This document shows, in pieces, positions 1 to 9,867 of a stretch of 9,867 nucleotides of DNA. Within the stretch, counting starts at the first letter, position 1. Each line of letters begins with the position of its first letter. The translations under genes and the position numbers were made by a program. The stretch is from JBFMHD01 sp040752395 [NCBI: Candidatus Hydrogenedentota bacterium] (lineage in GTDB: Bacteria; JBFMHD01), in NCBI GenBank assembly GCA_040752395.1, contig JBFMHD010000096.1, forward strand, positions 1 to 9,867. The letters run 5' to 3'. The notes beneath the pieces are model-generated. The model made no database searches, was not told where the DNA came from, and saw only the letters and a program-made list of their open reading frames with translations.

Positions 1-18
1 CTACACTATTGTGTTCTT

Positions 19-66
19 GGGTTATTGGGTTATTGGGTTATTGGGTTATTGGGTTATTGGGTTATT
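19..66. repeat. 8-bp tandem repeat GGGTTATT, six perfect copies
   Basis: Six uninterrupted copies of GGGTTATT run from 19 to 66, followed by two degraded units at 67-82 (gcgttttt, gcgttatc). The array lies in the non-coding stretch before sat. An open frame passes through it and would encode repeated 'GYWVIGLL', but that is translated repeat: sat has a well-placed start with a ribosome binding site at 202. Arrays of this kind change copy number by slippage. No function is evident. Confidence 0.9.
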
Positions 67-76
67 GCGTTTTTGC

Positions 77-152
77 GTTATCTTGCTTCTTGCCTCTCGC
101 TTCTTTCGTTATCTTTCTTTTTTGTTATCTTGCTTCTTGCCTCTCGCTTCTT
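77..152. repeat. 29-bp direct repeat, pyrimidine-rich, two exact copies
   Basis: Positions 77-105 and 124-152 are identical over 29 bases (gttatcttgc...cgcttctt), separated by a short T/C-rich spacer. The block is almost purely pyrimidine on the + strand. Its second copy runs directly into leader A of sat, and a diverged version occurs at 1381-1410 ahead of the phosphodiesterase gene, so it belongs to the same dispersed sequence family. Confidence 0.85.
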
Positions 153-196
153 GTTTCTACTTGATATCATTAGAGTTACGGCGTTTTTCGGAGGAG
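128..196 (+). promoter_or_regulatory. Leader A, copy 1 (upstream of sat)
   Basis: This 69-base stretch aligns without gaps to 1381-1449. The 3' 28 bases (169-196) also match 6052-6079. The conserved core reads ATTAGAGTTAC, then three variable purine/pyrimidine positions, GTTTTTC and finally a GGAGGAG ribosome binding site 5 bases before the sat ATG. TATCAT at 165-170, just before the core, could be a -10 box, but I see no convincing -35, so the promoter role is inferred. The RBS role is direct from position. Confidence 0.7.
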
Positions 197-201
197 TGTT
201 T

Positions 202-1347
202 ATGAGTCTTGAACCCTATGGTGGTAAACTGGTTGAACGTTGTGTTAAAAGCGAGGAAGTAAACGAGTGGAGAGAATGGGGAGCCTCGTTAAAAAATATA
301 CAGATCGCTCCAAGAATCGAATCTGATGTATATCTACTTGCAATCGGTGCATTGTCACCGCTTGAAGGATTTGTCTCTAAAAAAGAGTATGATTCTATAA
401 TTAATGAGATGAAACTTTCTAATGGATTACCCTGGGCTATACCAATTACCTGCCAAATAACAAAAGAGAAACTTGTAGAACTAAAAAAAGAAAAATCTGT
501 TTCTTTGGTTAATACTGAGAATAAAATTATTGCTACTCTGGATGTTAATGAAATTTTTGAGTTGGATAAGAAAAGAGAAGCAGAGAAAGTTTTTAGAACA
601 ATTGATACAGCGCATCCGGGTGTTTTTAAATTATTTGAACTCGGTGAGTTTTCTGTAGCAGGTAAGATAAAGTATGATTTAACTACCTTTATACCGGAGT
701 TCACTGAATATACCAATACCCCGAGGCAATTAAGAAAAAAATTCAAAGAATCAGGCTGGAGAACTATCGTGGCTTTTCAAACAAGAAACCCGGTACACAG
801 AGCACATGAGTATTTACAGAAATGTGCGCTTGAGATAGTTGATGGACTGCTTTTACACCCGATAGTAGGTGAGATAAAAAAGGATGATATACCTGCAAAT
901 ATACGAATGGAGTGTTATAAAACTTTGCTTAATAATTACTATCCTGCAAATAGGGTTTGTTTATCGGTTCTACCTATGGCTATGCGTTATGCAGGACCTT
1001 CAGAAGCTATACATCATTCAATTATAAGACGAAATTATGGATGTACGCATATTATAATAGGTCGAGATCATGCAGGTGTTGGGAATTACTATGACCCATA
1101 CGATGCACAGAAGATTTTCGATTATGTTGATAAAGAAAAACTTGGTATTATTCCTTTGTTTTTTGAGAACTCGTTCTACTGTAAGAAGTGTAAGCAGATG
1201 GCTACTTCTAAAACCTGTCCACATAGTGAAAAGGAGCAGGTTTTCTTATCAGGTACTAAATTAAGGGAACTTTTAAAAGAAGGCGTGCTGCCGCCAGAGG
1301 AGTTCTCAAGAAAGGAAGTAGCTCAAATATTAATGAGATCACTTTAG
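202..1347 (+). CDS. sat: Sulfate adenylyltransferase (ATP sulfurylase)
   Basis: Sat converts ATP and sulfate to adenylyl sulfate (APS) and pyrophosphate in the cytoplasm, or runs in reverse in sulfur oxidisers. The 381-residue protein has the family's nucleotide-binding motif QTRNPVHRAHE at residues 193-203, followed by GEIKKDDIP, and the second motif GRDHAGVG at 287-294. A C-x2-C-x8-C-x-H cluster (C327, C330, C339, H341) resembles the zinc site described for the Thermus enzyme; this suggests the single-subunit prokaryotic Sat type rather than CysDN. There is no C-terminal APS kinase domain. The start at 202 is chosen because GGAGGAG lies 5 bases upstream; the 59 in-frame codons before it only translate simple repeats. 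The neighbouring phosphodiesterase gene shares the same leader, but no APS reductase, APS kinase or sulfite reductase gene lies in the window. Its role, assimilation, dissimilation or supply for sulfation, is therefore open. Confidence 0.95.
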   Translation: MSLEPYGGKLVERCVKSEEVNEWREWGASLKNIQIAPRIESDVYLLAIGALSPLEGFVSKKEYDSIINEMKLSNGLPWAIPITCQITKEKLVELKKEKSVSLVNTENKIIATLDVNEIFELDKKREAEKVFRTIDTAHPGVFKLFELGEFSVAGKIKYDLTTFIPEFTEYTNTPRQLRKKFKESGWRTIVAFQTRNPVHRAHEYLQKCALEIVDGLLLHPIVGEIKKDDIPANIRMECYKTLLNNYYPANRVCLSVLPMAMRYAGPSEAIHHSIIRRNYGCTHIIIGRDHAGVGNYYDPYDAQKIFDYVDKEKLGIIPLFFENSFYCKKCKQMATSKTCPHSEKEQVFLSGTKLRELLKEGVLPPEEFSRKEVAQILMRSL

Positions 1348-1380
1348 GGAGTCAAAGAGTCGAGAGTCAGGAGTCAGACT
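1348..1380. repeat. 'gagtcaggagtcag' simple-repeat tract
   Basis: The spacer just after the sat stop holds degenerate repeats of a GAGTC-containing unit (agtcaaagagtcgagagtcaggagtcag). A related GAGTTAG/AAGTTAG series closes the window at 9849-9867. It can pair imperfectly with the following GACTTCTTG, but no T-run follows, so I do not call a terminator. The sequence is a spacer repeat of unknown role. Confidence 0.6.
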
Positions 1381-1449
1381 TCTTGCTTCTTGCCTCTTGC
1401 CTCTTGCTTCTACTTGATATTATTAGAGTTACAATGTTTTTCAGAGGAG
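1381..1449 (+). promoter_or_regulatory. Leader A, copy 2 (upstream of phosphodiesterase gene)
   Basis: This stretch aligns without gaps over 69 bases to 128-196. By hand I count 8 differences, all transitions. The core 1422-1449 ends in GAGGAG, 4 bases before the ATG at 1454. TATTAT at 1418-1423 sits where TATCAT lies in copy 1 and AATTAT in copy 3, so a -10 element is conceivable. Conservation spans both the pyrimidine-rich part and the RBS-containing core. Confidence 0.7.
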
Positions 1450-1453
1450 ATCA

Positions 1454-2836
1454 ATGGTAAAGGTTGCTGTTATTGGAATAGATAGCGCTGTCTGGGATTT
1501 TGTTTTTAATAAATATAAAGTTTATTTACCCAATTTACAAAAACTTATGAATAATGGTGTTTATGGGATAATGGAAAGTACAATCCCGGCTGTTACTGTT
1601 CCTGCATGGTCATCTATGATGTCGGGTAAGGACCCCGGACAACTTGGTGTTTATGGTTTCAGAAACAGGAAAGATTATTCTTATACTGAATTAATTATCT
1701 CAGATTCTTTATCAATAAAAGAACCGAGAATCTGGGACATTCTTTCAAGAAATAGAAAACAATCCATAGTATTTACAGTGCCACAGACATATCCCCCAAA
1801 GCCATTACGTGGTCAGCTGGTAGGTTGTTTTCTCACACCTGATAATAATGCTAATTACACATATCCTGAAAGTTTAAAAGAAGAGATAGAGAGAACCACC
1901 TCTGGTTTTATAATTGATGTGCGGGAATTCAGAACAGAAGACAAAGAAAGATTACTAAAAGAGATTTACGAGATGACTGATAAACAATTCTTTGCAGTAA
2001 AATATCTTTTAACAAAATACGAATGGGATTTTTTTATGATGGTACAGATGGGGATTGATAGAATCCAGCACGGGTTCTGGAGATTCTGCGATGAGAAACA
2101 CAGGCTTTATGAAAAAGGGAATAAATATGAATTTGTTTTAAGAGATTATTATATTTATATTGACAGGAAAATAGGGGAGTTAATCGAGAAGTTCGATAAT
2201 GACACTGTTATTTTTGTGGTTTCAGACCATGGGTCGCAGAATATGTATGGCGGGGTTTGCATTAATGAGGTATTAATAGAGGAAGGATTATTAAAACTCA
2301 AGGAGTATCCAGCAAAAATAACACAGCTTAAACCTGAGATGATAGATTGGGAGAGAACCTACTGCTTTGGTGAGGGCGGTTATTTTGCCAGACTTTTTCT
2401 GAATGTCAAAGATAGAGAAGAGAGAGGTATCGTTCATTATAACGAAATAGAATTATTTATAAAAAGGGTTGAAGCAGCGTTAAACAATGTTAAAGATAAG
2501 GATAACAATAAAATTAAGATAACTATATACAGGCCACAGGAGATTTATAAAGAATGCAAAAACATCCCGCCAGATGCTATTATCTATTTTGGAGATTTGT
2601 CATACAGGTCAGTGGGTTCGGTTGGGTACAAATCATTTATCACCTATGAGAACGATACAGGTCCCGATGATTCAAACCACCACCCGGATGCTTTATTCAT
2701 TCTCTCAAATTGTAAACAACTAAATAAAAACGGCAAACTTCTGCATAAAATCTCAATCTACGATATAGCACCTACTATTTTAACATTATTTAATGTATCT
2801 TTACCACCAGGTATGATAGGTAAATCATTAATATAA
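1454..2836 (+). CDS. Type I phosphodiesterase / nucleotide pyrophosphatase-like protein (alkaline phosphatase superfamily)
   Basis: This 460-residue protein is a two-metal hydrolase of the alkaline phosphatase superfamily. Expected metal ligands and nucleophile appear in family order: D10 in the N-terminal GID; T48 in TVPAWSSMMSG as the probable nucleophile; D202 and H206 in IDRIQHGFW; D258 and H259 in SDHG; and H409 in NHHPD. A threonine nucleophile, rather than the cysteine of sulfatases, points to phosphodiester or phosphoanhydride hydrolysis. The substrate cannot be read from sequence. There is no signal peptide or membrane segment, so it should be cytoplasmic. GAGGAG 4 bases upstream supports the start. 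It follows sat by 106 bases and shares its leader, so action on a nucleotide linked to sulfate activation is possible but only inferred. It converges on the carbamoyltransferase gene with 6 bases between stop codons. Confidence 0.85.
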   Translation: MVKVAVIGIDSAVWDFVFNKYKVYLPNLQKLMNNGVYGIMESTIPAVTVPAWSSMMSGKDPGQLGVYGFRNRKDYSYTELIISDSLSIKEPRIWDILSRNRKQSIVFTVPQTYPPKPLRGQLVGCFLTPDNNANYTYPESLKEEIERTTSGFIIDVREFRTEDKERLLKEIYEMTDKQFFAVKYLLTKYEWDFFMMVQMGIDRIQHGFWRFCDEKHRLYEKGNKYEFVLRDYYIYIDRKIGELIEKFDNDTVIFVVSDHGSQNMYGGVCINEVLIEEGLLKLKEYPAKITQLKPEMIDWERTYCFGEGGYFARLFLNVKDREERGIVHYNEIELFIKRVEAALNNVKDKDNNKIKITIYRPQEIYKECKNIPPDAIIYFGDLSYRSVGSVGYKSFITYENDTGPDDSNHHPDALFILSNCKQLNKNGKLLHKISIYDIAPTILTLFNVSLPPGMIGKSLI

Positions 2837-2842
2837 AAATAC

Positions 2843-5119
2843 TTATTTAATAAGTTGCGGCTGGATGAGATTAATTTTCACTCTATCTTTTCTGTAACCG
2901 AAGATTACAAGACCAAGTTGAACATTGCTTGTTAATGAAGAATGTGGTATATCACAGCTTATATTAAAATTATTAAAACCTGTATCAACAACTTCTCTTT
3001 TATATATCAGATATGTTTCATTATCAACAATATGCAGAATAAAAATATTTAGTGGCTCGGTTAATACATCAAATTCAAGCCCCAGCTTAAACAAGAATTT
3101 ATAATTATTACCAGCTGGTATCCTCCAGACAACCCTTACAGGAAATGGCAGTAGAATAGAGTAATTATCACTATTTTCCTCTCTGATCCGTATAATATTT
3201 TCTTTATATAAAGAGACGATATATTCGGGCTGATTAAATAAGAAATAAGGGAGTTTGTTTTTATTTATATTATCATAGACAAATGTAAAATGTGATTCCC
3301 ATCTATTGCGTTTTTTCATCTCTTTTCTATTTTTTAATTTTTTTCTGATTTTGTTTCTGGTCATTCTAAATTTGTCTATGAACCAGCCCCTGAACCTACC
3401 CCACAGATTTTTACCAAGAAGATAATCTTCGATTACAAGATAATCTATATTAGTAGAGAGGAAAGTTCTTATAGCATCATCCGGGGTTTCTACAATGGGC
3501 TCGCCTGCTATATTAAATGAGGTATTCAGTATTACAGGCGTCCCTGTGATCTCGCCAAACTTTTTTACCATCCTGTAATAACTATCATTCTCTTCTTCAG
3601 TAATGGTTTGAACCCTTGCGGTATTATCAATGTGTGTTATAGCTGGGACCTCTTTTATCTTATTTGGGAGAACAGGAGCGACAATGAGCATATAGGGGCT
3701 TTCCAAATCAAGATCAAAGTATTTTTTAGTATTTTCTAAAGGCACAGAGGGAGCAAAAGGTCTGAAGCTTTCTCTGTGTTTAACTCGTTTATTAAGTATA
3801 TCCTTGGTTTTTTCACCACGGGAATCAGTAATGATTGAGCGGTGACCGAGGCTACGTGGCCCGAATTCGCTGCCTCCTTGAAACCATCCCAATATATAAC
3901 CCTTTGACAATAATCTTGCTGATTCTTCTTCTACATTGCCTTTTTTAAGTATCGTAACACCATTACGAGACCGAACAGATTGAGATATCTCATCTTTTGT
4001 ATAGGGTCTTCCTAAAAAGGCATTTTTCATTCTCCATTTTGACGGTTGATTTAAAATAACGCGCCACCCATATAACGCGTTCCCGAGACAACAACCATCG
4101 TCAGTTGCAGCTGGCTGTATAAACAGATTTTTTATCGGTGTTTTATCAATGATAAGTTTGTTTGTTACGCTATTTAAAGCAACGCCGCCACCAAGACATA
4201 AATTCGGTTCACCTGTTTGATTATACAGCCACTCCACGCAATGGATGAGTATCTCTTGAAGAATTTCTTGCACAGCATAAGCCATATTTAAGTCATCTTT
4301 CCGATATGTCGTACCAATGGCTTTAGGTCGTCCGAATAATATTTCAAAAAGGCGCTCATAACTGCTCTCAACAAAATATTCTTTAAAAAATCTTAAAGCC
4401 GGTTTGATTTTATAGATGCTATCCCGGTCATTTAGAAAGTATTGTGTCTTAAACAATTCAAGTAAACCCGAGGCTCTTCCATAAGGCGCAATGCCCATTG
4501 TTTTGCCTTCCTCAGTATTCCGAAAACCTATATACCTTGTTATGGAAGTATAGAGCGCACCAAGTGATATAGTGTAATCAAAATCAGAGGTGCTGTACGG
4601 TTCTGAGAGTTTCTTTAATAACGTTATTTTATTATCTACTCCATAATAAAAACTTGTTGCTTCTATTCTTAAACTCTCTTCTTCATCAACGATACTTCCC
4701 CAACCATCAACAACGAGGATAGCAGAATGCTCAAAACCAGAAGCAAAATAAGCGCTTGCAGAGTGACTTAAATGATGGGTTATTATATGAATTTTATTTT
4801 TATCTTTAATCTTAAGCTGGGAATGTATATCTTCTACGGTTAATTGTCTTTGAATATTTTTTCGGGTATCATCCACCCAGATGGTAGAGCATACGATACA
4901 ATCTATATCATTGATATTTATTCCAGCATAATCAAGACAATAGTTAAGTGATAATGGGGCGATGGACCTCCAGAAAAATCCATCCCTATCTTTGGGCATA
5001 TGATATTTTTTTATTCGGTTAAGCCGTTCCTCATTAATCGCAACTAATGGGATACCGTCTTTTATAATGCAGGCTGATGGGTCGTGTGATAGATTTAACC
5101 CGAGAACATAAACTGACAT
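2843..5119 (-). CDS. Carbamoyltransferase (NodU/CmcH/TobZ family) with C-terminal extension
   Basis: Enzymes of this family transfer a carbamoyl group from carbamoyl phosphate, through carbamoyl adenylate, to a hydroxyl on a small molecule or sugar. Residues 1 to about 350 form the Kae1-like ATPase-fold domain: GLNLSHD at 7-13, the metal-binding HHLSH at 115-119, VVDGWGS at 136-142, GGGVALNS at 310-317 and ATDDGCCLGNA at 338-348. Residues about 365-570 match the C-terminal carbamoyltransferase domain: GGSEFGPRSLGHRSI at 415-429, RPFAPS at 453-458 and NTSFNIAGEP at 532-541. The acceptor is unknown. The 758-residue length exceeds the usual roughly 550-620. A strongly basic stretch at 577-605 leads into an unrecognised, apparently beta-rich domain at about 606-758. 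The start has GAGG 5 bases upstream, inside leader B. It is the only minus-strand gene in the window. Confidence 0.93.
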   Translation of the reverse strand: MSVYVLGLNLSHDPSACIIKDGIPLVAINEERLNRIKKYHMPKDRDGFFWRSIAPLSLNYCLDYAGININDIDCIVCSTIWVDDTRKNIQRQLTVEDIHSQLKIKDKNKIHIITHHLSHSASAYFASGFEHSAILVVDGWGSIVDEEESLRIEATSFYYGVDNKITLLKKLSEPYSTSDFDYTISLGALYTSITRYIGFRNTEEGKTMGIAPYGRASGLLELFKTQYFLNDRDSIYKIKPALRFFKEYFVESSYERLFEILFGRPKAIGTTYRKDDLNMAYAVQEILQEILIHCVEWLYNQTGEPNLCLGGGVALNSVTNKLIIDKTPIKNLFIQPAATDDGCCLGNALYGWRVILNQPSKWRMKNAFLGRPYTKDEISQSVRSRNGVTILKKGNVEEESARLLSKGYILGWFQGGSEFGPRSLGHRSIITDSRGEKTKDILNKRVKHRESFRPFAPSVPLENTKKYFDLDLESPYMLIVAPVLPNKIKEVPAITHIDNTARVQTITEEENDSYYRMVKKFGEITGTPVILNTSFNIAGEPIVETPDDAIRTFLSTNIDYLVIEDYLLGKNLWGRFRGWFIDKFRMTRNKIRKKLKNRKEMKKRNRWESHFTFVYDNINKNKLPYFLFNQPEYIVSLYKENIIRIREENSDNYSILLPFPVRVVWRIPAGNNYKFLFKLGLEFDVLTEPLNIFILHIVDNETYLIYKREVVDTGFNNFNISCDIPHSSLTSNVQLGLVIFGYRKDRVKINLIQPQLIK

Positions 5120-5124
5120 AAATA

Positions 5125-5166
5125 CCTCGTCTTTTCTTCTTTGTGCCTGATGACTGTCGAAACTCT
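5125..5166 (-). promoter_or_regulatory. Leader B, copy 1 (upstream of carbamoyltransferase gene)
   Basis: Read on the minus strand, this stretch matches 7037-7086 upstream of glyA. It begins AGAGTTTCG, continues CAGTCATCAGGCAC and a purine-rich AAGAAGAAAA, and ends in ACGAGG, which supplies the ribosome binding site 5 bases before the ATG at 5119. The only large difference from copy 2 is the absence of an 8-base duplication (agaggcac). The same position and orientation relative to two unrelated genes argue for a leader role. Confidence 0.7.
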
Positions 5167-5191
5167 AAATCTCATATTTTTCTATCAAAAG

Positions 5192-5209
5192 GTCAAGAAT
5201 TACCTTGAC
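5192..5209. promoter_or_regulatory. Inverted repeat in the divergent spacer with back-to-back TTGAC boxes
   Basis: GTCAAG and CTTGAC form a perfect 6-base inverted repeat around a 6-base centre. It places TTGACG on the + strand (5205-5210) and TTGACC on the - strand (5196-5191), both good -35 candidates facing away from each other. On the + strand TAAATT follows at 16-base spacing (5227-5232), a 4/6 match to a -10 box. The minus side has no equally good -10. T6 at 5211-5216 also makes it look like a short terminator hairpin. Its position between divergent genes favours promoter or operator. Confidence 0.4.
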
Positions 5210-5271
5210 GTTTTTTATTAAATTTTTAAATTTAATATATGTAGAAAGGCAAACGTTTTTTCTTTTTATAT

Positions 5272-5277
5272 GGGAAG
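5272..5277 (+). promoter_or_regulatory. Ribosome binding site GGGAAG deciding the start at 5286
   Basis: GGGAAG lies 8 bases before the ATG at 5286. The open frame extends upstream to a TTG at 5205, but that codon lies in the inverted repeat and has no ribosome binding site. The extra 27 residues are also unlike the charged helical start of this family. The ATG at 5286 is therefore preferred. Confidence 0.7.
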
Positions 5278-5285
5278 AAATAACT

Positions 5286-5945
5286 ATGAAGAAAAGATAT
5301 GATATAGACAAAATCTTAAAAGGGATTGAAGAACTAAAAGAGAGCCAGAAGAAAACAGATGAGCAGTTAAAGAAAACAGATGAGCAGTTAAAGAAAACGG
5401 ATGAGCAGTTAAATAGGACAGATGCAGAAATAGATAGAGTTATTAAGGAGGCAGAAGAGCGGTCAAAGAGGATAGACGCAGAGATAGAGAAAGTTAACAA
5501 GATGGTAGGTAATTTAACAGATGGCTGGGGTAAATTCGTAGAAGGGCTTGTTGAACCCGCTGTCTGGGTGCTATTTAAGAGATTAGGTTATAAGATAACA
5601 AGGACATTGCAGAGAGTGAGTTCAAATGTGAATGGTAGGAATTTAGAGATAGATATTCTTGCGATAGGTAAAAACAAAGAAGGCGAAGATATAATTTTAG
5701 TGACAGAGGTAAAAAGCAATTTAACAATAGAGGAAGTAAAAAAAATCGAGGGGGTGCTAAGAGAGTTCATAGAATTTTTTCCAGAATATAGAGGTAAAAA
5801 GGTGATAGGTGTTGCAAGTGGGATAAGATTTGAGAAAGGTGCGGGGGGATATGCAGAGGGCCGGGGATTATATGTATTGGCGCCATCAGGTGAGAATATG
5901 AAGATATTGAATAGTTCTGATTTTAAGCCAAGGATATGGGGCTAA
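5286..5945 (+). CDS. Coiled-coil protein with C-terminal PD-(D/E)XK nuclease-like domain (DUF3782-like)
   Basis: This 219-residue protein is of unknown function. Residues about 8-75 form a charged coiled coil containing exact heptads KKTDEQL at 22-28, 29-35 and 36-42, then degenerate copies NRTDAEI at 43-49 and KRIDAEI at 61-67. After a WGKFVE linker, residues about 80-219 resemble the endonuclease-like fold of DUF3782-type proteins. The pattern EID at 121-123, then EVK at 141-143, fits a PD-(D/E)XK core with D123, E141 and K143 as catalytic candidates. The family is widespread, often multicopy, in archaea, cyanobacteria and other prokaryotes; nuclease activity is inferred from fold only. There is no signal peptide or membrane segment. 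It stands alone between a divergent gene and a repeat-rich spacer and carries neither leader A nor leader B, suggesting independent expression or later arrival. Confidence 0.8.
   Translation: MKKRYDIDKILKGIEELKESQKKTDEQLKKTDEQLKKTDEQLNRTDAEIDRVIKEAEERSKRIDAEIEKVNKMVGNLTDGWGKFVEGLVEPAVWVLFKRLGYKITRTLQRVSSNVNGRNLEIDILAIGKNKEGEDIILVTEVKSNLTIEEVKKIEGVLREFIEFFPEYRGKKVIGVASGIRFEKGAGGYAEGRGLYVLAPSGENMKILNSSDFKPRIWG
5349..5432 (+). repeat. 21-bp in-gene tandem repeat encoding coiled-coil heptads
   Basis: Three 21-base units (5349-5369, 5370-5390, 5391-5411) are nearly identical and encode KKTDEQL each time. A fourth, diverged unit at 5412-5432 encodes NRTDAEI. Because the unit is seven codons, expansion or contraction by slippage keeps both reading frame and heptad phase, so coiled-coil length can vary between strains. 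Confidence 0.9.
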
Positions 5946-6051
5946 ATTACGCATTTCGTATTTTGAATTTTTTAAAGGATGTTGGCTTCAGTCTCCGGGC
6001 TTTTGGCTCCAGCCGGCTGTAGTCCGTAGCCTGTAGCCTGTACCCCGAATT
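5946..6051. repeat. Spacer with simple repeats, including four 7-bp TGTAGCC-type units
   Basis: The spacer starts with an A/T-rich part (TACG-cattt-CGTA, then T-runs at 5961-5973) and turns sharply GC-richer from about 5980. It contains the perfect palindrome CAGCCGGCTG at 6010-6019. Four 7-base units follow at 6018-6045 (tgtagtc, cgtagcc, tgtagcc, tgtaccc). The tract runs straight into leader A copy 3. No open reading frame of note is present. Confidence 0.75.
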
Positions 6052-6079
6052 ATTAGAGTTACAGCGTTTTTCGAAGGAG
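6052..6079 (+). promoter_or_regulatory. Leader A, copy 3 (upstream of fba)
   Basis: These 28 bases match the cores before sat (2 differences) and the phosphodiesterase gene (4 differences): ATTAGAGTTAC, then AGC, GTTTTTC and AAGGAG. The ribosome binding site AAGGAGG at 6074-6080 lies 7 bases before the fba ATG. Unlike copies 1 and 2, the flank here is the TGTAGCC tract instead of the pyrimidine-rich tract, so the core is the conserved unit. Confidence 0.75.
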
Positions 6080-6087
6080 GATAATTT

Positions 6088-7014
6088 ATGCCACTTGTAT
6101 CATCTAAAGAATTATTTAAAAAGGCTTATAAAGAGGGTTATGCTATTGGTGCGTTTAATGTAAATAATATGGAGATACTCCAGGGTATCATGGATGGCTG
6201 TTCTGAGGAAAAGGCGCCGGTTATATTGCAGTTTTCAGCTGGCGCAAGAAAATATGCTCGGCATGAATATTTATGGCATCTTGTAGCAGCTGCGCTTGAA
6301 ACAGCTAATATACCTGTAGTATTACACCTTGATCATGGTGAAGATTTCGAGGTAGCTAAATCCTGTGTAGATGGCGGATTTACATCGGTTATGATTGATG
6401 GCTCGAAACATCCGCTTGAAGAAAACATAAGATTAACAAAAAAGGTTGTGGATTATGCCCATTCCAAAGGTGTTGTTGTAGAAGCAGAGCTCGGTCGGCT
6501 TGCTGGTGTTGAGGATGCCATCTCAGTAAAGGAGAAGGATGCTATTTTTACTAATCCAGATGAAGCAAAACGGTTTGTTGAAGAGACAGGTTGCGATTCG
6601 TTAGCGGTTGCGATAGGTACAAGTCACGGCGCTTATAAATTCAAAGGCGAGCCAAAACTTGATTTTGAAAGACTGCAAAAGATTCAGGACAAATTACCCG
6701 GGTTTCCACTTGTGCTTCACGGCGCCTCGAGTGTGCTTGATTATCTTGTTGAGCAGTGTAATAAATATGGTGGCAAACTACCGGGGACCAGGGGTGTACC
6801 TGAGGAGATGATATCACAGGCAGCTAAAATGGCTGTATGCAAAGTTAATATTGATACGGATTTAAGAATCGCAATGACAGCCTCGATTAGAAAAGTATTT
6901 GCTGAAAGCCCATCCGAGTTTGATCCGAGAAAATATCTTGGGCCTGCTCGTGATGCTATAAAAGAGGTTGTGAAACATAAATTGCACATACTTGGTTGCG
7001 CGGGTAAAGTATAA
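6088..7014 (+). CDS. fba: Class II fructose-1,6-bisphosphate aldolase
   Basis: This zinc-dependent aldolase interconverts fructose 1,6-bisphosphate with dihydroxyacetone phosphate and glyceraldehyde 3-phosphate in glycolysis and gluconeogenesis. The 308-residue protein is the normal length for the shorter class II enzymes and shows the expected TIM-barrel motifs: AFNVNNME at 22-29; LDHGEDFE at 81-88, with catalytic D82 and zinc ligand H83; EAELGRLAG at 132-140, with E134; GTSHGAYKF at 177-185, with zinc ligand H180; LHGASS at 210-215, with zinc ligand H211; and the phosphate-binding NIDTDLR at 254-260. AAGGAGG 7 bases upstream supports the start. It leads a + strand run, with glyA beginning 80 bases downstream. 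A tagatose-bisphosphate aldolase would look similar, but nothing nearby points to tagatose metabolism. Confidence 0.95.
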
Positions 7015-7036
7015 CCCGAGTCCAAAGTTTGTCAAC

Positions 7037-7086
7037 AGAGTTTCGGCAGTCATCAGGCACAGAGGCACAAAGAAGAAAAAACGTGG
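7037..7086 (+). promoter_or_regulatory. Leader B, copy 2 (upstream of glyA)
   Basis: This stretch matches the minus-strand copy at 5125-5166, with three substitutions and one 8-base insertion, a tandem duplication of agaggcac at about 7061-7068. It begins AGAGTTTCGGCAGTCATC and ends in a purine-rich run and ACGTGG, adjoining the glyA ribosome binding site. An open frame from a TTG at 7029 runs through it into glyA. The 22 residues encoded there come from the repeat and are not expected in the protein. Confidence 0.7.
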
Positions 7087-7094: not shown

Positions 7095-8342
7095 ATGGGT
7101 TTATTATCAACTTTTGATCCGGAAATTTTTCAAGCGATTAAAAATGAAGAATATCGTCAGATGATGCATCTTGAAATGATAGCTTCTGAAAATTTTGTTA
7201 GCCCGGCTGTATTAGAAGCGCAAGCCTGTGTAATGACAAATAAATATGCTGAAGGGTATCCGGGTAAAAGATATTATGCTGGTTGTGAGTTTGTTGATGT
7301 TGCTGAACAGCTCGCTATTGATAGAACAAAATCTATTTTTAAATGTGAACATGCAAACGTCCAGCCACATTCAGGTTCACAGGCTAATATGGCTGTATAT
7401 ATGTGTTTACTTAATCCGGGGGATACGATTCTCGGAATGAGTCTATCACACGGCGGTCATCTTACACATGGTAGCCCTGTAAATTTTAGCGGGAAATTAT
7501 ATAAAGTGGTATCCTATGGCGTTGACCCGGAAACAGAAGTTCTAAATTATGATGAGATTCTAAAAATAGCTGAACAAACCAGACCAAAACTTATTATGTG
7601 TGGTGCGAGCGCTTATCCACGTATTATACGTTTTGACAGATTCAAAGAAATAGCTGATAAAGTTGGCGCATTTCTTGTCGCTGACATCGCTCATATAGCA
7701 GGCCTTATTGCAACTGATTTACATCCATCACCAGAACCCTACTGCGATTTTGTAACAACTACAACTCATAAAACTTTACGCGGACCACGCGGCGGGATTG
7801 TAATGTGTAAAGAAAAATTCGCTAAAGATTTAGATAAAACTGTATTCCCCGGTGAACAGGGCGGACCTTTTATGCATACTATCGCTGCCAAGGCTGTATG
7901 TTTAAAAGAAGTTATGTCAGAGTCGTTTAAAATTTATTCCCAGCAGATTATTAAAAATGCTAAAAGATTGGCTGATGTCTTAATTTCAAAGGGTTTTAGA
8001 CTTATAAGTAACGGCACTGATAATCATCTTATGCTTGTTGATTTAACTGATAAGAATATTACAGGTAAAGATGCAGAAAAAACTCTTGAAAAAATCGGGA
8101 TAACTGTTAATAAAAATACAGTCCCCAGAGAAACACGCTCACCTTTTGTGGCGAGCGGTATAAGAATCGGAACACCTGCGATTACTACCAGAGGGATGAA
8201 AGAAAAAGAAATGGAAAAGATTGGCGAATGGATAGCTTATGTATTATCTGATATAACTAATGATAAAAGAATTGGTTCTATAAAAGAAGAGGTATTAAAG
8301 CTTTGTAAAAACTACCCACTTTTCAAAGAAGAGTGGAATTAA
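7095..8342 (+). CDS. glyA: Serine hydroxymethyltransferase
   Basis: GlyA is a PLP enzyme that converts serine and tetrahydrofolate to glycine and 5,10-methylenetetrahydrofolate, the main source of one-carbon units. From the ATG at 7095 the protein has 415 residues, the normal length. Visible family motifs are [15 protein letters not shown] at 29-43; [15 protein letters not shown] at 51-65; [11 protein letters not shown] at 92-102; [10 protein letters not shown] at 196-205, with cofactor-contacting D197 and H200; and [14 protein letters not shown] at 221-234, with K226 as the PLP-binding lysine. [14 protein letters not shown] at 354-367 carries the carboxylate-binding arginine. All key residues are present. 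It lies 80 bases after fba and 14 bases before the hydantoinase-type gene, so co-transcription is likely, though leader B in the upstream gap could carry its own promoter. Confidence 0.97.
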
Positions 8343-8356: not shown

Positions 8357-9745
8357 ATGTTTGATCTAATTATTAATAATGGCAAGGTTGTTACAGCTAA
8401 AGACTCATTTAAAGCAGATGTAGGGATTAAGAATGGGAAGATACTTGCAATAGGTGAGCGGCTTAAAGGTAATAGTAGAACCGAGATAATCGATGCCAAG
8501 GGTAAACTTGTAATGCCTGGTGCTATTGATGTCCATGTCCATCTACAACTGCCTTTTTGTGGAACCGTTAGTGCAGATGATTTTGAGAACGGAACCAAAG
8601 CAGCTGCGTGCGGCGGAGTAACCACTGTAATTGATTATGCTATCCAGACAAAAGGCTCAACAATTACTGAAGCTATTAAAGCAAGAAAGAAAGAAGCTGA
8701 GACTAAAGTTTGTGTGGACTATTCGCTACATGGCGGTATAACTGACTGGAATGATAGAACACAGAAAGAGGTTGGCGAGATAATTAAGAAAGAGGGTATC
8801 CCGAGTTTTAAGATGTTTATGATTTATAAAACCCAGGGCTGGATGGCTGATGACGGCGCTTTATATCAGGCGCTTGAAACCACAGCACCGCTTGGCGGTA
8901 TGATTATGGTGCATGCTGAAAGCGTGTTTGTGCTTGATATGCTTGTGGCACGGTATCATGAAATAAAGAATAAGGTCAGCGCTTATGGACATGTTTTATC
9001 AAGACCGAATTTTACAGAATACGAAGCAGTACAACGGGCTGTTTTATGGGCAGAGGTAACAGGTGGTAAACTTTATGTTGTTCATATCTCAACAGGTGAA
9101 GCTTGTGATATACTAAAAAGGAGTCAGGAGAAAGGTGCACGAGTCTATGGCGAGACCTGCCCGCAATACCTTTTACTTGATGACTCGGTATTTAAGGGTA
9201 AGGATGGCCATCTTTATGCAACCTGCCCACAGATAAAAAAGAAAAAAGATTCGCTAAGATTATGGAAAGCTTTATATGATGGTGAGTTAGCCATCGTATC
9301 CACAGATACCTGCACATTTGATAAAAAACAGAAAGCGATGTGGAAGGGTGATTTTACTAAAATACCGTTCGGGATGCCAGGCGTAGAAACAATGTTGCCA
9401 CTTACTTTTCATTTCGGAAAAAAGAAAGGGTTTAGTATTAATAAAATAGTTGAGATATGTTGTACTAACCCTGCAAAACTTCATGGATTGTATCCTGAAA
9501 AAGGAACACTTGCTATTGGTAGCGATGCTGATATCGTTGTTTATGACCCAAATATTAAAGTAAAAATTGATTACCATAAACTTCAAACAAACTGTGATTG
9601 GAGCCCGTATCAGGGATGGCAGATTCAAGGCTGGCCCACCGTGACCTTATCGCGCGGTAAAATAGTTGCCATGAATGCTAAGTTCGTTGGTGAGAAAGGC
9701 TGGGGTAGATTCGTTAAAAGAAAACCATTTGGTGAAATAAGATAA
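8357..9745 (+). CDS. hydA: Dihydropyrimidinase / D-hydantoinase family amidohydrolase
   Basis: Family members open cyclic amide rings (dihydrouracil, dihydrothymine, hydantoins) using two metals bridged by a carboxylated lysine. The 462-residue protein has the full metal set: H60 and H62 in DVHVHLQLPF, K152 in SFKMFMIYK, H186 in VHAES, H243 in VVHIST and D317 in STDTCTF. Y157 matches the catalytic tyrosine, and residues 383-396 carry the GTLAIGSDADIVVY end motif. Several substrate-side motifs depart from the family as I know it: the usual TDHCPF reads TDTCTF at 316-321, SPPLR reads CPQIK at 290-294, and IPNG reads IPFG at 336-339. The substrate is therefore uncertain, and the gene symbol reflects the family only. 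No pyrimidine dehydrogenase or ureidopropionase gene is visible. It is translationally close to glyA (14-base gap) and presumably co-transcribed with it. Confidence 0.85.
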   Translation: MFDLIINNGKVVTAKDSFKADVGIKNGKILAIGERLKGNSRTEIIDAKGKLVMPGAIDVHVHLQLPFCGTVSADDFENGTKAAACGGVTTVIDYAIQTKGSTITEAIKARKKEAETKVCVDYSLHGGITDWNDRTQKEVGEIIKKEGIPSFKMFMIYKTQGWMADDGALYQALETTAPLGGMIMVHAESVFVLDMLVARYHEIKNKVSAYGHVLSRPNFTEYEAVQRAVLWAEVTGGKLYVVHISTGEACDILKRSQEKGARVYGETCPQYLLLDDSVFKGKDGHLYATCPQIKKKKDSLRLWKALYDGELAIVSTDTCTFDKKQKAMWKGDFTKIPFGMPGVETMLPLTFHFGKKKGFSINKIVEICCTNPAKLHGLYPEKGTLAIGSDADIVVYDPNIKVKIDYHKLQTNCDWSPYQGWQIQGWPTVTLSRGKIVAMNAKFVGEKGWGRFVKRKPFGEIR

Positions 9746-9867
9746 GATTTCTTCGAAAGATTGAAAGATTGAAAGATACGGCAAGGAAGTGTATATTTTC
9801 GCTTTCTTTACTTTTAACTTTTGACTTTTTACTTTTAACTTGTCATAGGAGTTAGAAGTTAGGAGTT
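9746..9867. repeat. A/T-rich spacer of short simple repeats
   Basis: The 122 bases after the last gene hold three kinds of short repeat. GAAAGATT occurs about three times at 9755-9777. ACTTTTAACTT occurs twice, at 9810-9820 and 9831-9841, around a ttttgacttttt centre. A GAGTTAG/AAGTTAG/GAGTT series lies at 9849-9867. I see no gene start and no convincing hairpin followed by T-run. The final series resembles the GAGTC tract after sat, so another leader or repeat unit may continue past the window edge. Confidence 0.6.

What the first reader, a model, noticed from the sequence alone, without database searches (positions are those of the whole stretch)
169..6079. Leader A: the same 28-base element precedes three unrelated genes and supplies their ribosome binding sites
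Cores at 169-196 (sat), 1422-1449 (phosphodiesterase) and 6052-6079 (fba) share ATTAGAGTTAC, GTTTTTC and AGGAG at matching spacing and end 4-8 bases from each start codon. Copy 3 has a different upstream flank, so the core itself is conserved. Dispersed repeats normally land anywhere; here every copy is in gene orientation and fused to the start. Possible explanations are a translation-enhancing 5'-UTR, a protein- or RNA-binding regulon site, a promoter with a -10 at the 5' edge, or a mobile leader that brings its own RBS.
Basis: partly seen in the sequence, partly recalled or inferred. Interest (0 to 1): 0.8.

Follow-up and report, generated by a model that had tools for sequence, protein, structure and literature searches.

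The report
Shared gene-start leader with ribosome site
In a bacterium of unknown identity, the same short stretch of DNA, ending in a ribosome-binding site, sits directly in front of three unrelated genes, and an eight-letter piece of it also opens a second repeated leader in front of two more genes, which suggests a reusable gene-start cassette.

Summary
Three exact copies of ATTAGAGTTACnnnGTTTTTCnnAGGAG (169-196, 1422-1449, 6052-6079) lie on the gene strand, 5, 4 and 8 bases before sat, a phosphodiesterase gene and fba; 200 shuffles gave none. A second repeated leader (B) sits 5 and 8 bases before the carbamoyltransferase and glyA. A and B share AGAGTTWC, found within 60 bases upstream of 5 of 7 genes; 500 shuffles never exceeded 1 gene. 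The RNA folds no better than shuffles and matches no Rfam family. I read it as a short promoter/5'-UTR/Shine-Dalgarno cassette spread by copying. Copies 1 and 2 share 37 of 41 upstream bases, with an extended -10-like sequence, but in that pair the core is no better conserved than the flank; copy 3 shares only the core. Promoter, translation element or regulator site is undecided. No genome is held for the window.

The parts
169..196 (+). Leader A copy 1, ATTAGAGTTAC-GGC-GTTTTTC-GG-AGGAG, 5 bases before sat ATG (202)
1422..1449 (+). Leader A copy 2, ATTAGAGTTAC-AAT-GTTTTTC-AG-AGGAG, 4 bases before phosphodiesterase ATG (1454)
6052..6079 (+). Leader A copy 3, ATTAGAGTTAC-AGC-GTTTTTC-GA-AGGAG, 8 bases before fba ATG (6088)
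128..168 (+). Upstream flank of copy 1, 37 of 41 bases identical to 1381-1421; degenerate 7-base-unit array (81-158) then an extended -10-like TGATATCAT (162-170, reaching into the core)
1381..1421 (+). Upstream flank of copy 2; CTTCTTG 7-base array (1379-1411) then an extended -10-like TGATATTAT (1415-1423, reaching into the core)
6017..6042 (+). Different 7-base array (CTGTAGC) upstream of copy 3, followed by AATTAT (6048-6053)
5125..5166 (-). Leader B copy 1 (AGAGTTTCGACAGTCATCAGGCACAAAGAAGAAAAGACGAGG), 5 bases before the carbamoyltransferase ATG (5119, - strand)
   Evidence: (I1, I5)
7037..7086 (+). Leader B copy 2 (AGAGTTTCGGCAGTCATCAGGCACAGAGGCACAAAGAAGAAAAAACGTGG), 8 bases before glyA ATG (7095); has 8 extra bases
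   Evidence: (I1, I5)
202..1347 (+). sat, ATP sulfurylase
1454..2836 (+). type I phosphodiesterase / nucleotide pyrophosphatase family
2843..5119 (-). carbamoyltransferase, preceded by leader B
6088..7014 (+). fba, class II fructose-bisphosphate aldolase
7095..8342 (+). glyA, serine hydroxymethyltransferase, preceded by leader B (start taken at the ATG at 7095; the ORF list opens at a TTG at 7029)

Best explanation
Leader A is a short gene-start cassette: a promoter-proximal box (extended -10-like TGATAT(C/T)AT running into ATTAGAGTTAC), then a short unstructured 5' UTR with a U-run (GTTTTTC), then a Shine-Dalgarno AGGAG fused to the start codon. Copies spread within the genome by duplication of intergenic DNA (copies 1 and 2 as a block of about 69 bp with its repeat array; copy 3 keeps only the core) and were kept because the unit delivers transcription start and ribosome binding together. 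SHOWN: three exact copies, orientation, a distance of 4-8 bases to ATG, AGGAG in each copy, eight letters shared with leader B, no RNA structure beyond chance. INFERRED: that transcription starts in or just after the ATTAGAGTTAC box; that the U-run aids ribosome loading (for example through protein S1); that copying rather than convergence made the copies; that selection keeps them.
For: Three 0-mismatch copies against 0 in 200 shuffles. All three are on the gene strand, 4-8 bases from ATG. The 5 variable columns fall in two runs (12-14, 22-23); two or fewer runs has p = 0.011 if variable columns were scattered at random, which suggests constrained boxes. Copies 1 and 2 share 37/41 flank bases plus the core: copying. 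TG plus a 5/6 -10 hexamer lies at the 5' edge of copies 1 and 2. AGAGTTWC occurs 6 times in the window, 5 of them within 60 bases upstream of a start on the gene strand; shuffles average 0.57 sites (maximum 4) and 0.008 genes (maximum 1 of 7). The leaders with the first codons fold no better than shuffles (z = 1.28, 0.45, -0.26 for A copies 1-3; 0.97 and 1.78 for the glyA and carbamoyltransferase B copies), as expected for an open initiation region. In gene frame copy 2 has a TAG inside its first box and copy 3 has TAA between core and ATG, so the leader is not a protein extension there.
Against: No -35 better than 2 of 6 at 16-18 bases from the 5'-edge -10 hexamers of copies 1-3. The consensus scan finds promoter-like sites in the window at the chance rate (33 against 32.2), none at copies 1 and 2, and its one hit overlapping copy 3 (6058-6085) would have its -10 between the SD and the ATG. 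Another TG plus 4/6 hexamer lies 76 bases before sat, so such matches are not rare here. Copy 3 has only a 4/6 hexamer and no TG; glyA has the head but no -10-like hexamer within 80 bases of its ATG (it may be cotranscribed with fba, inference). Between copies 1 and 2 the core (24/28) is not better conserved than the flank (37/41). Relaxed forms of the shared head show little or no excess: TTAGAGTTWC with 1 mismatch 5 sites, reached by 8 of 200 shuffles; AGAGTTWCRRC with 2 mismatches 11 sites against 12.8 expected. Only three copies from one unplaced contig; no close relative could be examined.
Confidence: 0.5

Rival explanations
1. An RNA-level translation element only: the U-run and SD (and perhaps the head) are bound by ribosomal protein S1, a cold-shock-type protein or another RNA-binding factor, and the promoters lie further upstream and differ.
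For: The conserved block ends at the SD and sits 4-8 bases from ATG; no structure beyond chance; the head recurs in leader B without a -10-like hexamer beside it at glyA. Start-adjacent heptamer repeats with a proposed S1/Csp/Csr role are described in Beggiatoaceae (PMC4679880; abstract, outline and 12 passages seen), and an A/U-rich enhancer upstream of the SD is described for T7 gene 10 (PMC8748333, six passages seen).
Against: S1-type enhancers need no 11-base exact box (my own knowledge); the -10-like hexamers at the 5' edge of copies 1 and 2 would be coincidence.
Confidence: 0.22
2. A protein-binding regulon operator shared by sat, the phosphodiesterase and fba.
For: Invariant boxes at fixed spacing in front of separate genes.
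Against: No dyad symmetry between the ends (2 of 12 bases complementary); no obvious common pathway (families; the judgement is mine); fusion to the SD 4-8 bases from ATG is not needed for an operator.
Confidence: 0.12
3. A neutral dispersed repeat of a repeat-rich genome that happened to be copied with its ribosome site; retention reflects recency, not function.
For: Intergenic regions hold many 7-8-base tandem arrays; in copies 1 and 2 core and flank diverge alike; leader B differs by 8 bases between copies.
Against: Copy 3 shares the core but not the flank; variable columns cluster (p = 0.011); 3 of 3 copies are start-fused and co-oriented.
Confidence: 0.12
4. A miniature transposable element carrying an RBS.
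For: Identical boxes in three places.
Against: No terminal inverted repeats (2 of 12) and no flank duplication of 4-9 bases at copies 1 and 2, only AATT at an offset at copy 3; 28 bp is very short for a transposon (my own knowledge).
Confidence: 0.03

Closest known systems
Putative mobile promoters / promoter propagation in prokaryotes (Matus-Garcia, Nijveen and van Passel 2012; original and a 2014 follow-up not held; seen only as cited in passages of PMC8049555, PMC9208149, PMC9944727 and PMC5017796)
   Same: Repeated upstream DNA before unrelated genes of one genome, thought to be copied as a regulatory unit (outline recalled, and as cited)
   Different: Here the unit shared by all three copies is only 28 bp, ends in the SD and is fused to the start codon; transfer between genomes was not seen
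TAACTGA heptamer repeats upstream of start codons in Beggiatoaceae (PMC4679880, abstract, outline and passages)
   Same: Short repeated sequence within several bases of start codons of genes with no evident functional pattern, mostly in gene orientation; 7-base arrays are also present in this window
   Different: There the repeats are tandem heptamers and only about 10% of the intergenic regions with repeats also hold an SD; leader A is a single multi-box unit that contains an SD, and its heptamer arrays lie upstream of it
A/U-rich translation enhancers upstream of the SD, such as T7 gene 10 (PMC8748333, passages)
   Same: U-run a few bases 5' of an SD in a leader without structure beyond chance
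   Different: Leader A has a longer invariant 5' box and appears before several genes of one contig

Membership tests
Putative mobile promoters (criteria recalled in outline, source paper not held) | Near-identical upstream sequence before non-homologous genes in one genome | tested here: met
   3 copies on one contig; different Pfam families
Putative mobile promoters (criteria recalled in outline, source paper not held) | Repeat of promoter-region length (tens of bp or more) | tested here: inconclusive
   Copies 1 and 2: 69 bp at 88%; copy 3: 62% over 69 bp, sharing only the 28-bp core
Putative mobile promoters (criteria recalled in outline, source paper not held) | Contains a working promoter | not testable with these tools
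   Only hexamer matches for and against; no transcript data
Putative mobile promoters (criteria recalled in outline, source paper not held) | Presence/absence at orthologous loci in relatives | not testable with these tools
   No genome held; the one genome-contig scan gave a single hit inside a long reading frame
MITE / transposable element | Terminal inverted repeats | tested here: not met
   2 of 12 end bases complementary
MITE / transposable element | Target-site duplication | tested here: not met
   none of 4-9 bases at copies 1 and 2; a 4-base AATT at an offset at copy 3
Structured cis-regulatory RNA (riboswitch, attenuator) | Match to an Rfam family | tested here: not met
   none at gathering score; one sub-threshold match, outside the leaders
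Structured cis-regulatory RNA (riboswitch, attenuator) | Folding beyond chance | tested here: not met
   z from -0.26 to 1.78 in 5 of 5 leaders
Sigma-70-type promoter | -10 hexamer with -35 at 16-18 bases or an extended TG | tested here: inconclusive
   TG plus 5/6 hexamer in copies 1 and 2; 4/6 without TG in copy 3; -35 at most 2/6; consensus scan at chance rate

The most novel reading that the evidence does not exclude
This lineage uses a modular, genome-wide gene-start system: a common head (AGAGTTWC) joined to one of several interchangeable 5'-UTR bodies (A, B and perhaps more) that is copied in front of most transcription units and recognised by a dedicated initiation factor, so that many unrelated mRNAs start with nearly the same leader.
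Probability: 0.2. Interest if true: 0.75.

Novelty: new variant of a known kind. Interest (0 to 1): 0.5.

Why it matters
If it holds genome-wide, it would be a case in which promoter, 5' UTR and ribosome-binding site move and are maintained together as one unit, showing how an uncultured bacterium could rewire expression of housekeeping genes by copying a ready-made gene start. It would also give a compact, directly testable expression part.

Tried and rejected
Structured RNA: not supported; the only Rfam lead, Termite-leu at 5184-5249, scores 22.7 bits against a gathering score of 51 (E = 0.28) and lies outside the leaders. N-terminal extension of the proteins: rejected for copies 2 and 3 (stops in gene frame); for copy 1 the frame is open back to position 25, but the ATG at 202 fits the PDB homologue. 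Transposon: disfavoured.

Copies elsewhere: GTDB r220 contigs with a 20-letter exact pattern gave one hit, inside a 736-aa reading frame (pilB-like, name recalled from its sequence) of a Desulfobacteraceae MAG, so I take it as chance. IMG/VR gave 0 with the 20-letter pattern; 4 stretches with a 17-letter pattern, in two pairs with the same sequence around the hit: one pair inside a frame of over 1,200 residues, the other not in a long frame, none with AGG at the SD position; and 0 with a variant. Leader B: 0 and 0 in IMG/VR. 148 genomes of the phylum of that MAG, up to 3 mismatches: 4 of 148 genomes matched, one match each, G001 being the hit that selected the group; the reversed control pattern had 6 matches in 5 of 148. 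Of those 4 matches, 2 lie in long reading frames, 2 do not, and neither of these two has an ATG in the 25 bases after it. BLAST of the copy 1 stretch against plasmids and of the copy 2 stretch against phages gave only partial hits, E 0.2 or worse. fba as a probe in IMG/VR found no relative.

Placing the organism: SHMT matched 101 of 118 genomes of that phylum at E 1e-50 or better, best identity 66%; in plasmids the best of 10 listed rows (of 271 records) was 60.7%. This does not place the window. In the 12 SHMT loci fetched, AGAGTTWC was not within 100 bases upstream of the start picked by my script in 11 of 12; for L016 the script found no start, but AGAGTTWC is absent from that whole locus. 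The start picked is doubtful in L017, L020 and L023. The one AGAGTTWC in the 12 loci is in L017 at 2706, not upstream of the gene.

Relaxed head motifs gave little or no excess.

Papers: searches listed no description of this leader that I recognised (listings with abstract starts; one search returned none); the library holds open-licence PMC papers only.
Full report
WHAT IS THERE. The pattern ATTAGAGTTACNNNGTTTTTCNNAGGAG occurs exactly three times in the 9,867-base window, all on the + strand with no mismatch, at 169-196, 1422-1449 and 6052-6079; no further site appears with up to 3 mismatches and 200 shuffles gave none. The downstream genes belong to the ATP sulfurylase, type I phosphodiesterase and class II fructose-bisphosphate aldolase families, with 5, 4 and 8 bases between the core and ATG. 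The start positions of sat and fba fit solved homologues. The seven gene starts used below are ATG codons that I chose; for sat, the gene at 5286 and glyA the ORF list opens at an earlier TTG.

MORE THAN CHANCE. A random 28-mer would end 3-10 bases before one of seven starts on the right strand with p = 0.0028. The five variable columns lie in two runs, 12-14 and 22-23 (p = 0.011 for two or fewer runs under random scatter), so the element reads as three boxes: ATTAGAGTTAC, GTTTTTC and AGGAG. The caution is that copies 1 and 2 form one 69-base repeat (88%) with 37 of 41 flank bases shared against 24 of 28 core bases; in that pair the core is no better conserved than its flank. Only copy 3 (26/28 and 24/28 in the core, 17/41 and 20/41 in the flank) separates core from flank.

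A SECOND LEADER AND A SHARED HEAD. An inverted pair of repeats, 5127-5166 (-) and 7037-7076 (+), extended by 5125-5148 and 7063-7086 (I1 and I5), lies 5 bases before the carbamoyltransferase start and 8 bases before the glyA start, again in gene orientation. These leader B copies begin AGAGTTTCG(A/G)C, close to the AGAGTTAC(G/A)(G/A)(C/T) of leader A. AGAGTTWC occurs six times in the window; five lie within 60 bases upstream of a start on the gene strand, the sixth inside the carbamoyltransferase gene on the other strand. In 500 shuffles the mean number of genes with such a site was 0.008 and the maximum 1. Looser forms show little or no excess: TTAGAGTTWC with one mismatch 5 sites, reached in 8 of 200 shuffles; AGAGTTWCRRC with two mismatches 11 sites against 12.8 expected. 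The two genes without the head are the one at 5286 and the amidohydrolase gene at 8357, which follows glyA by 14 bases and is probably cotranscribed (inference). I found the head after looking at the repeats, so the statistic is post hoc, and the five sites come from two repeat families.

SURROUNDINGS. Intergenic stretches hold many 7-8-base tandem arrays (run at a low score limit), and such arrays end 9-10 bases upstream of each leader A copy, with similar units in copies 1 and 2 and another (CTGTAGC) in copy 3. Leader B copy 2 has 8 bases more than copy 1.

HOW IT MOST LIKELY WORKS. At the 5' edge, copies 1 and 2 have TGATATCAT and TGATATTAT, a correctly spaced TG before a 5/6 -10 hexamer; copy 3 has AATTAT without TG; no -35 better than 2 of 6 is present. 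Against this, the consensus scan finds sigma-70-like sites at the chance rate, none at copies 1 and 2 and one overlapping copy 3 whose -10 lies between SD and ATG, and a further TG plus 4/6 hexamer occurs 76 bases before sat. An extended -10 needs little of a -35 (established knowledge), so a start site in or just after the ATTAGAGTTAC box, giving a 5' UTR of roughly 20-30 bases with a U-run and an SD, is the simplest reading. The RNA folds no better than shuffles and matches no Rfam family at its gathering score, so a riboswitch or attenuator is unlikely and an open ribosome site likely. Copying of intergenic DNA explains the 69-base repeat. That selection keeps the core rests on copy 3, the clustered variable columns and the start-fused position, and is inferred.

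WHAT COULD NOT BE TESTED. No genome is held for the window. The one scan of GTDB contigs found a single hit inside a coding frame. Viral contigs gave none with the 20-letter pattern and four stretches with a shorter one, none with an SD in place. 148 genomes of the phylum of that one hit gave 4 matches with up to 3 mismatches, against 6 for the reversed control pattern; 2 of the 4 lie in long frames and the other 2 have no ATG in the next 25 bases. These scans show that the exact element was not found before a start codon in what was searched; they do not show that it is unique to this contig's lineage, because the lineage itself could not be placed.

COMPARISON. It works most like the putative mobile promoters of Matus-Garcia and colleagues (original papers not held; seen only as cited in passages of other papers). 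It also resembles the start-adjacent TAACTGA repeats of Beggiatoaceae (PMC4679880, abstract, outline and passages), of which only about 10% of intergenic regions also hold an SD. I do not claim membership in either: promoter activity and presence/absence in relatives were not testable. I rate it a new variant of a known kind, with moderate interest. The head shared by A and B is the most surprising part.

Noticed in passing
window 5125-5166 (-) and 7037-7086 (+): A second repeated leader (B) 5 and 8 bases before the carbamoyltransferase and glyA starts, sharing the head AGAGTTWC with leader A; copy 2 has 8 extra bases.
   Followed up: partly
window 7-158, 1348-1411, 6017-6042, 9755-9777, 9810-9867: Intergenic stretches hold different 7- and 8-base tandem arrays; the last runs to the window end, so another leader may follow outside.
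   Followed up: partly
window 5184-5249: Palindrome GTCAAG-AATTAC-CTTGAC between the divergent carbamoyltransferase gene and the gene at 5286, terminator-like on both strands; weak sub-threshold Rfam Termite-leu match (E = 0.28).
   Followed up: no
window 5349-5424: In-frame 21-base tandem repeat giving KKTDEQL-type heptads in the protein at 5286; it looks coiled-coil with a nuclease-like C-terminal part (my impression; Pfam gave only matches below cut-off).
   Followed up: no
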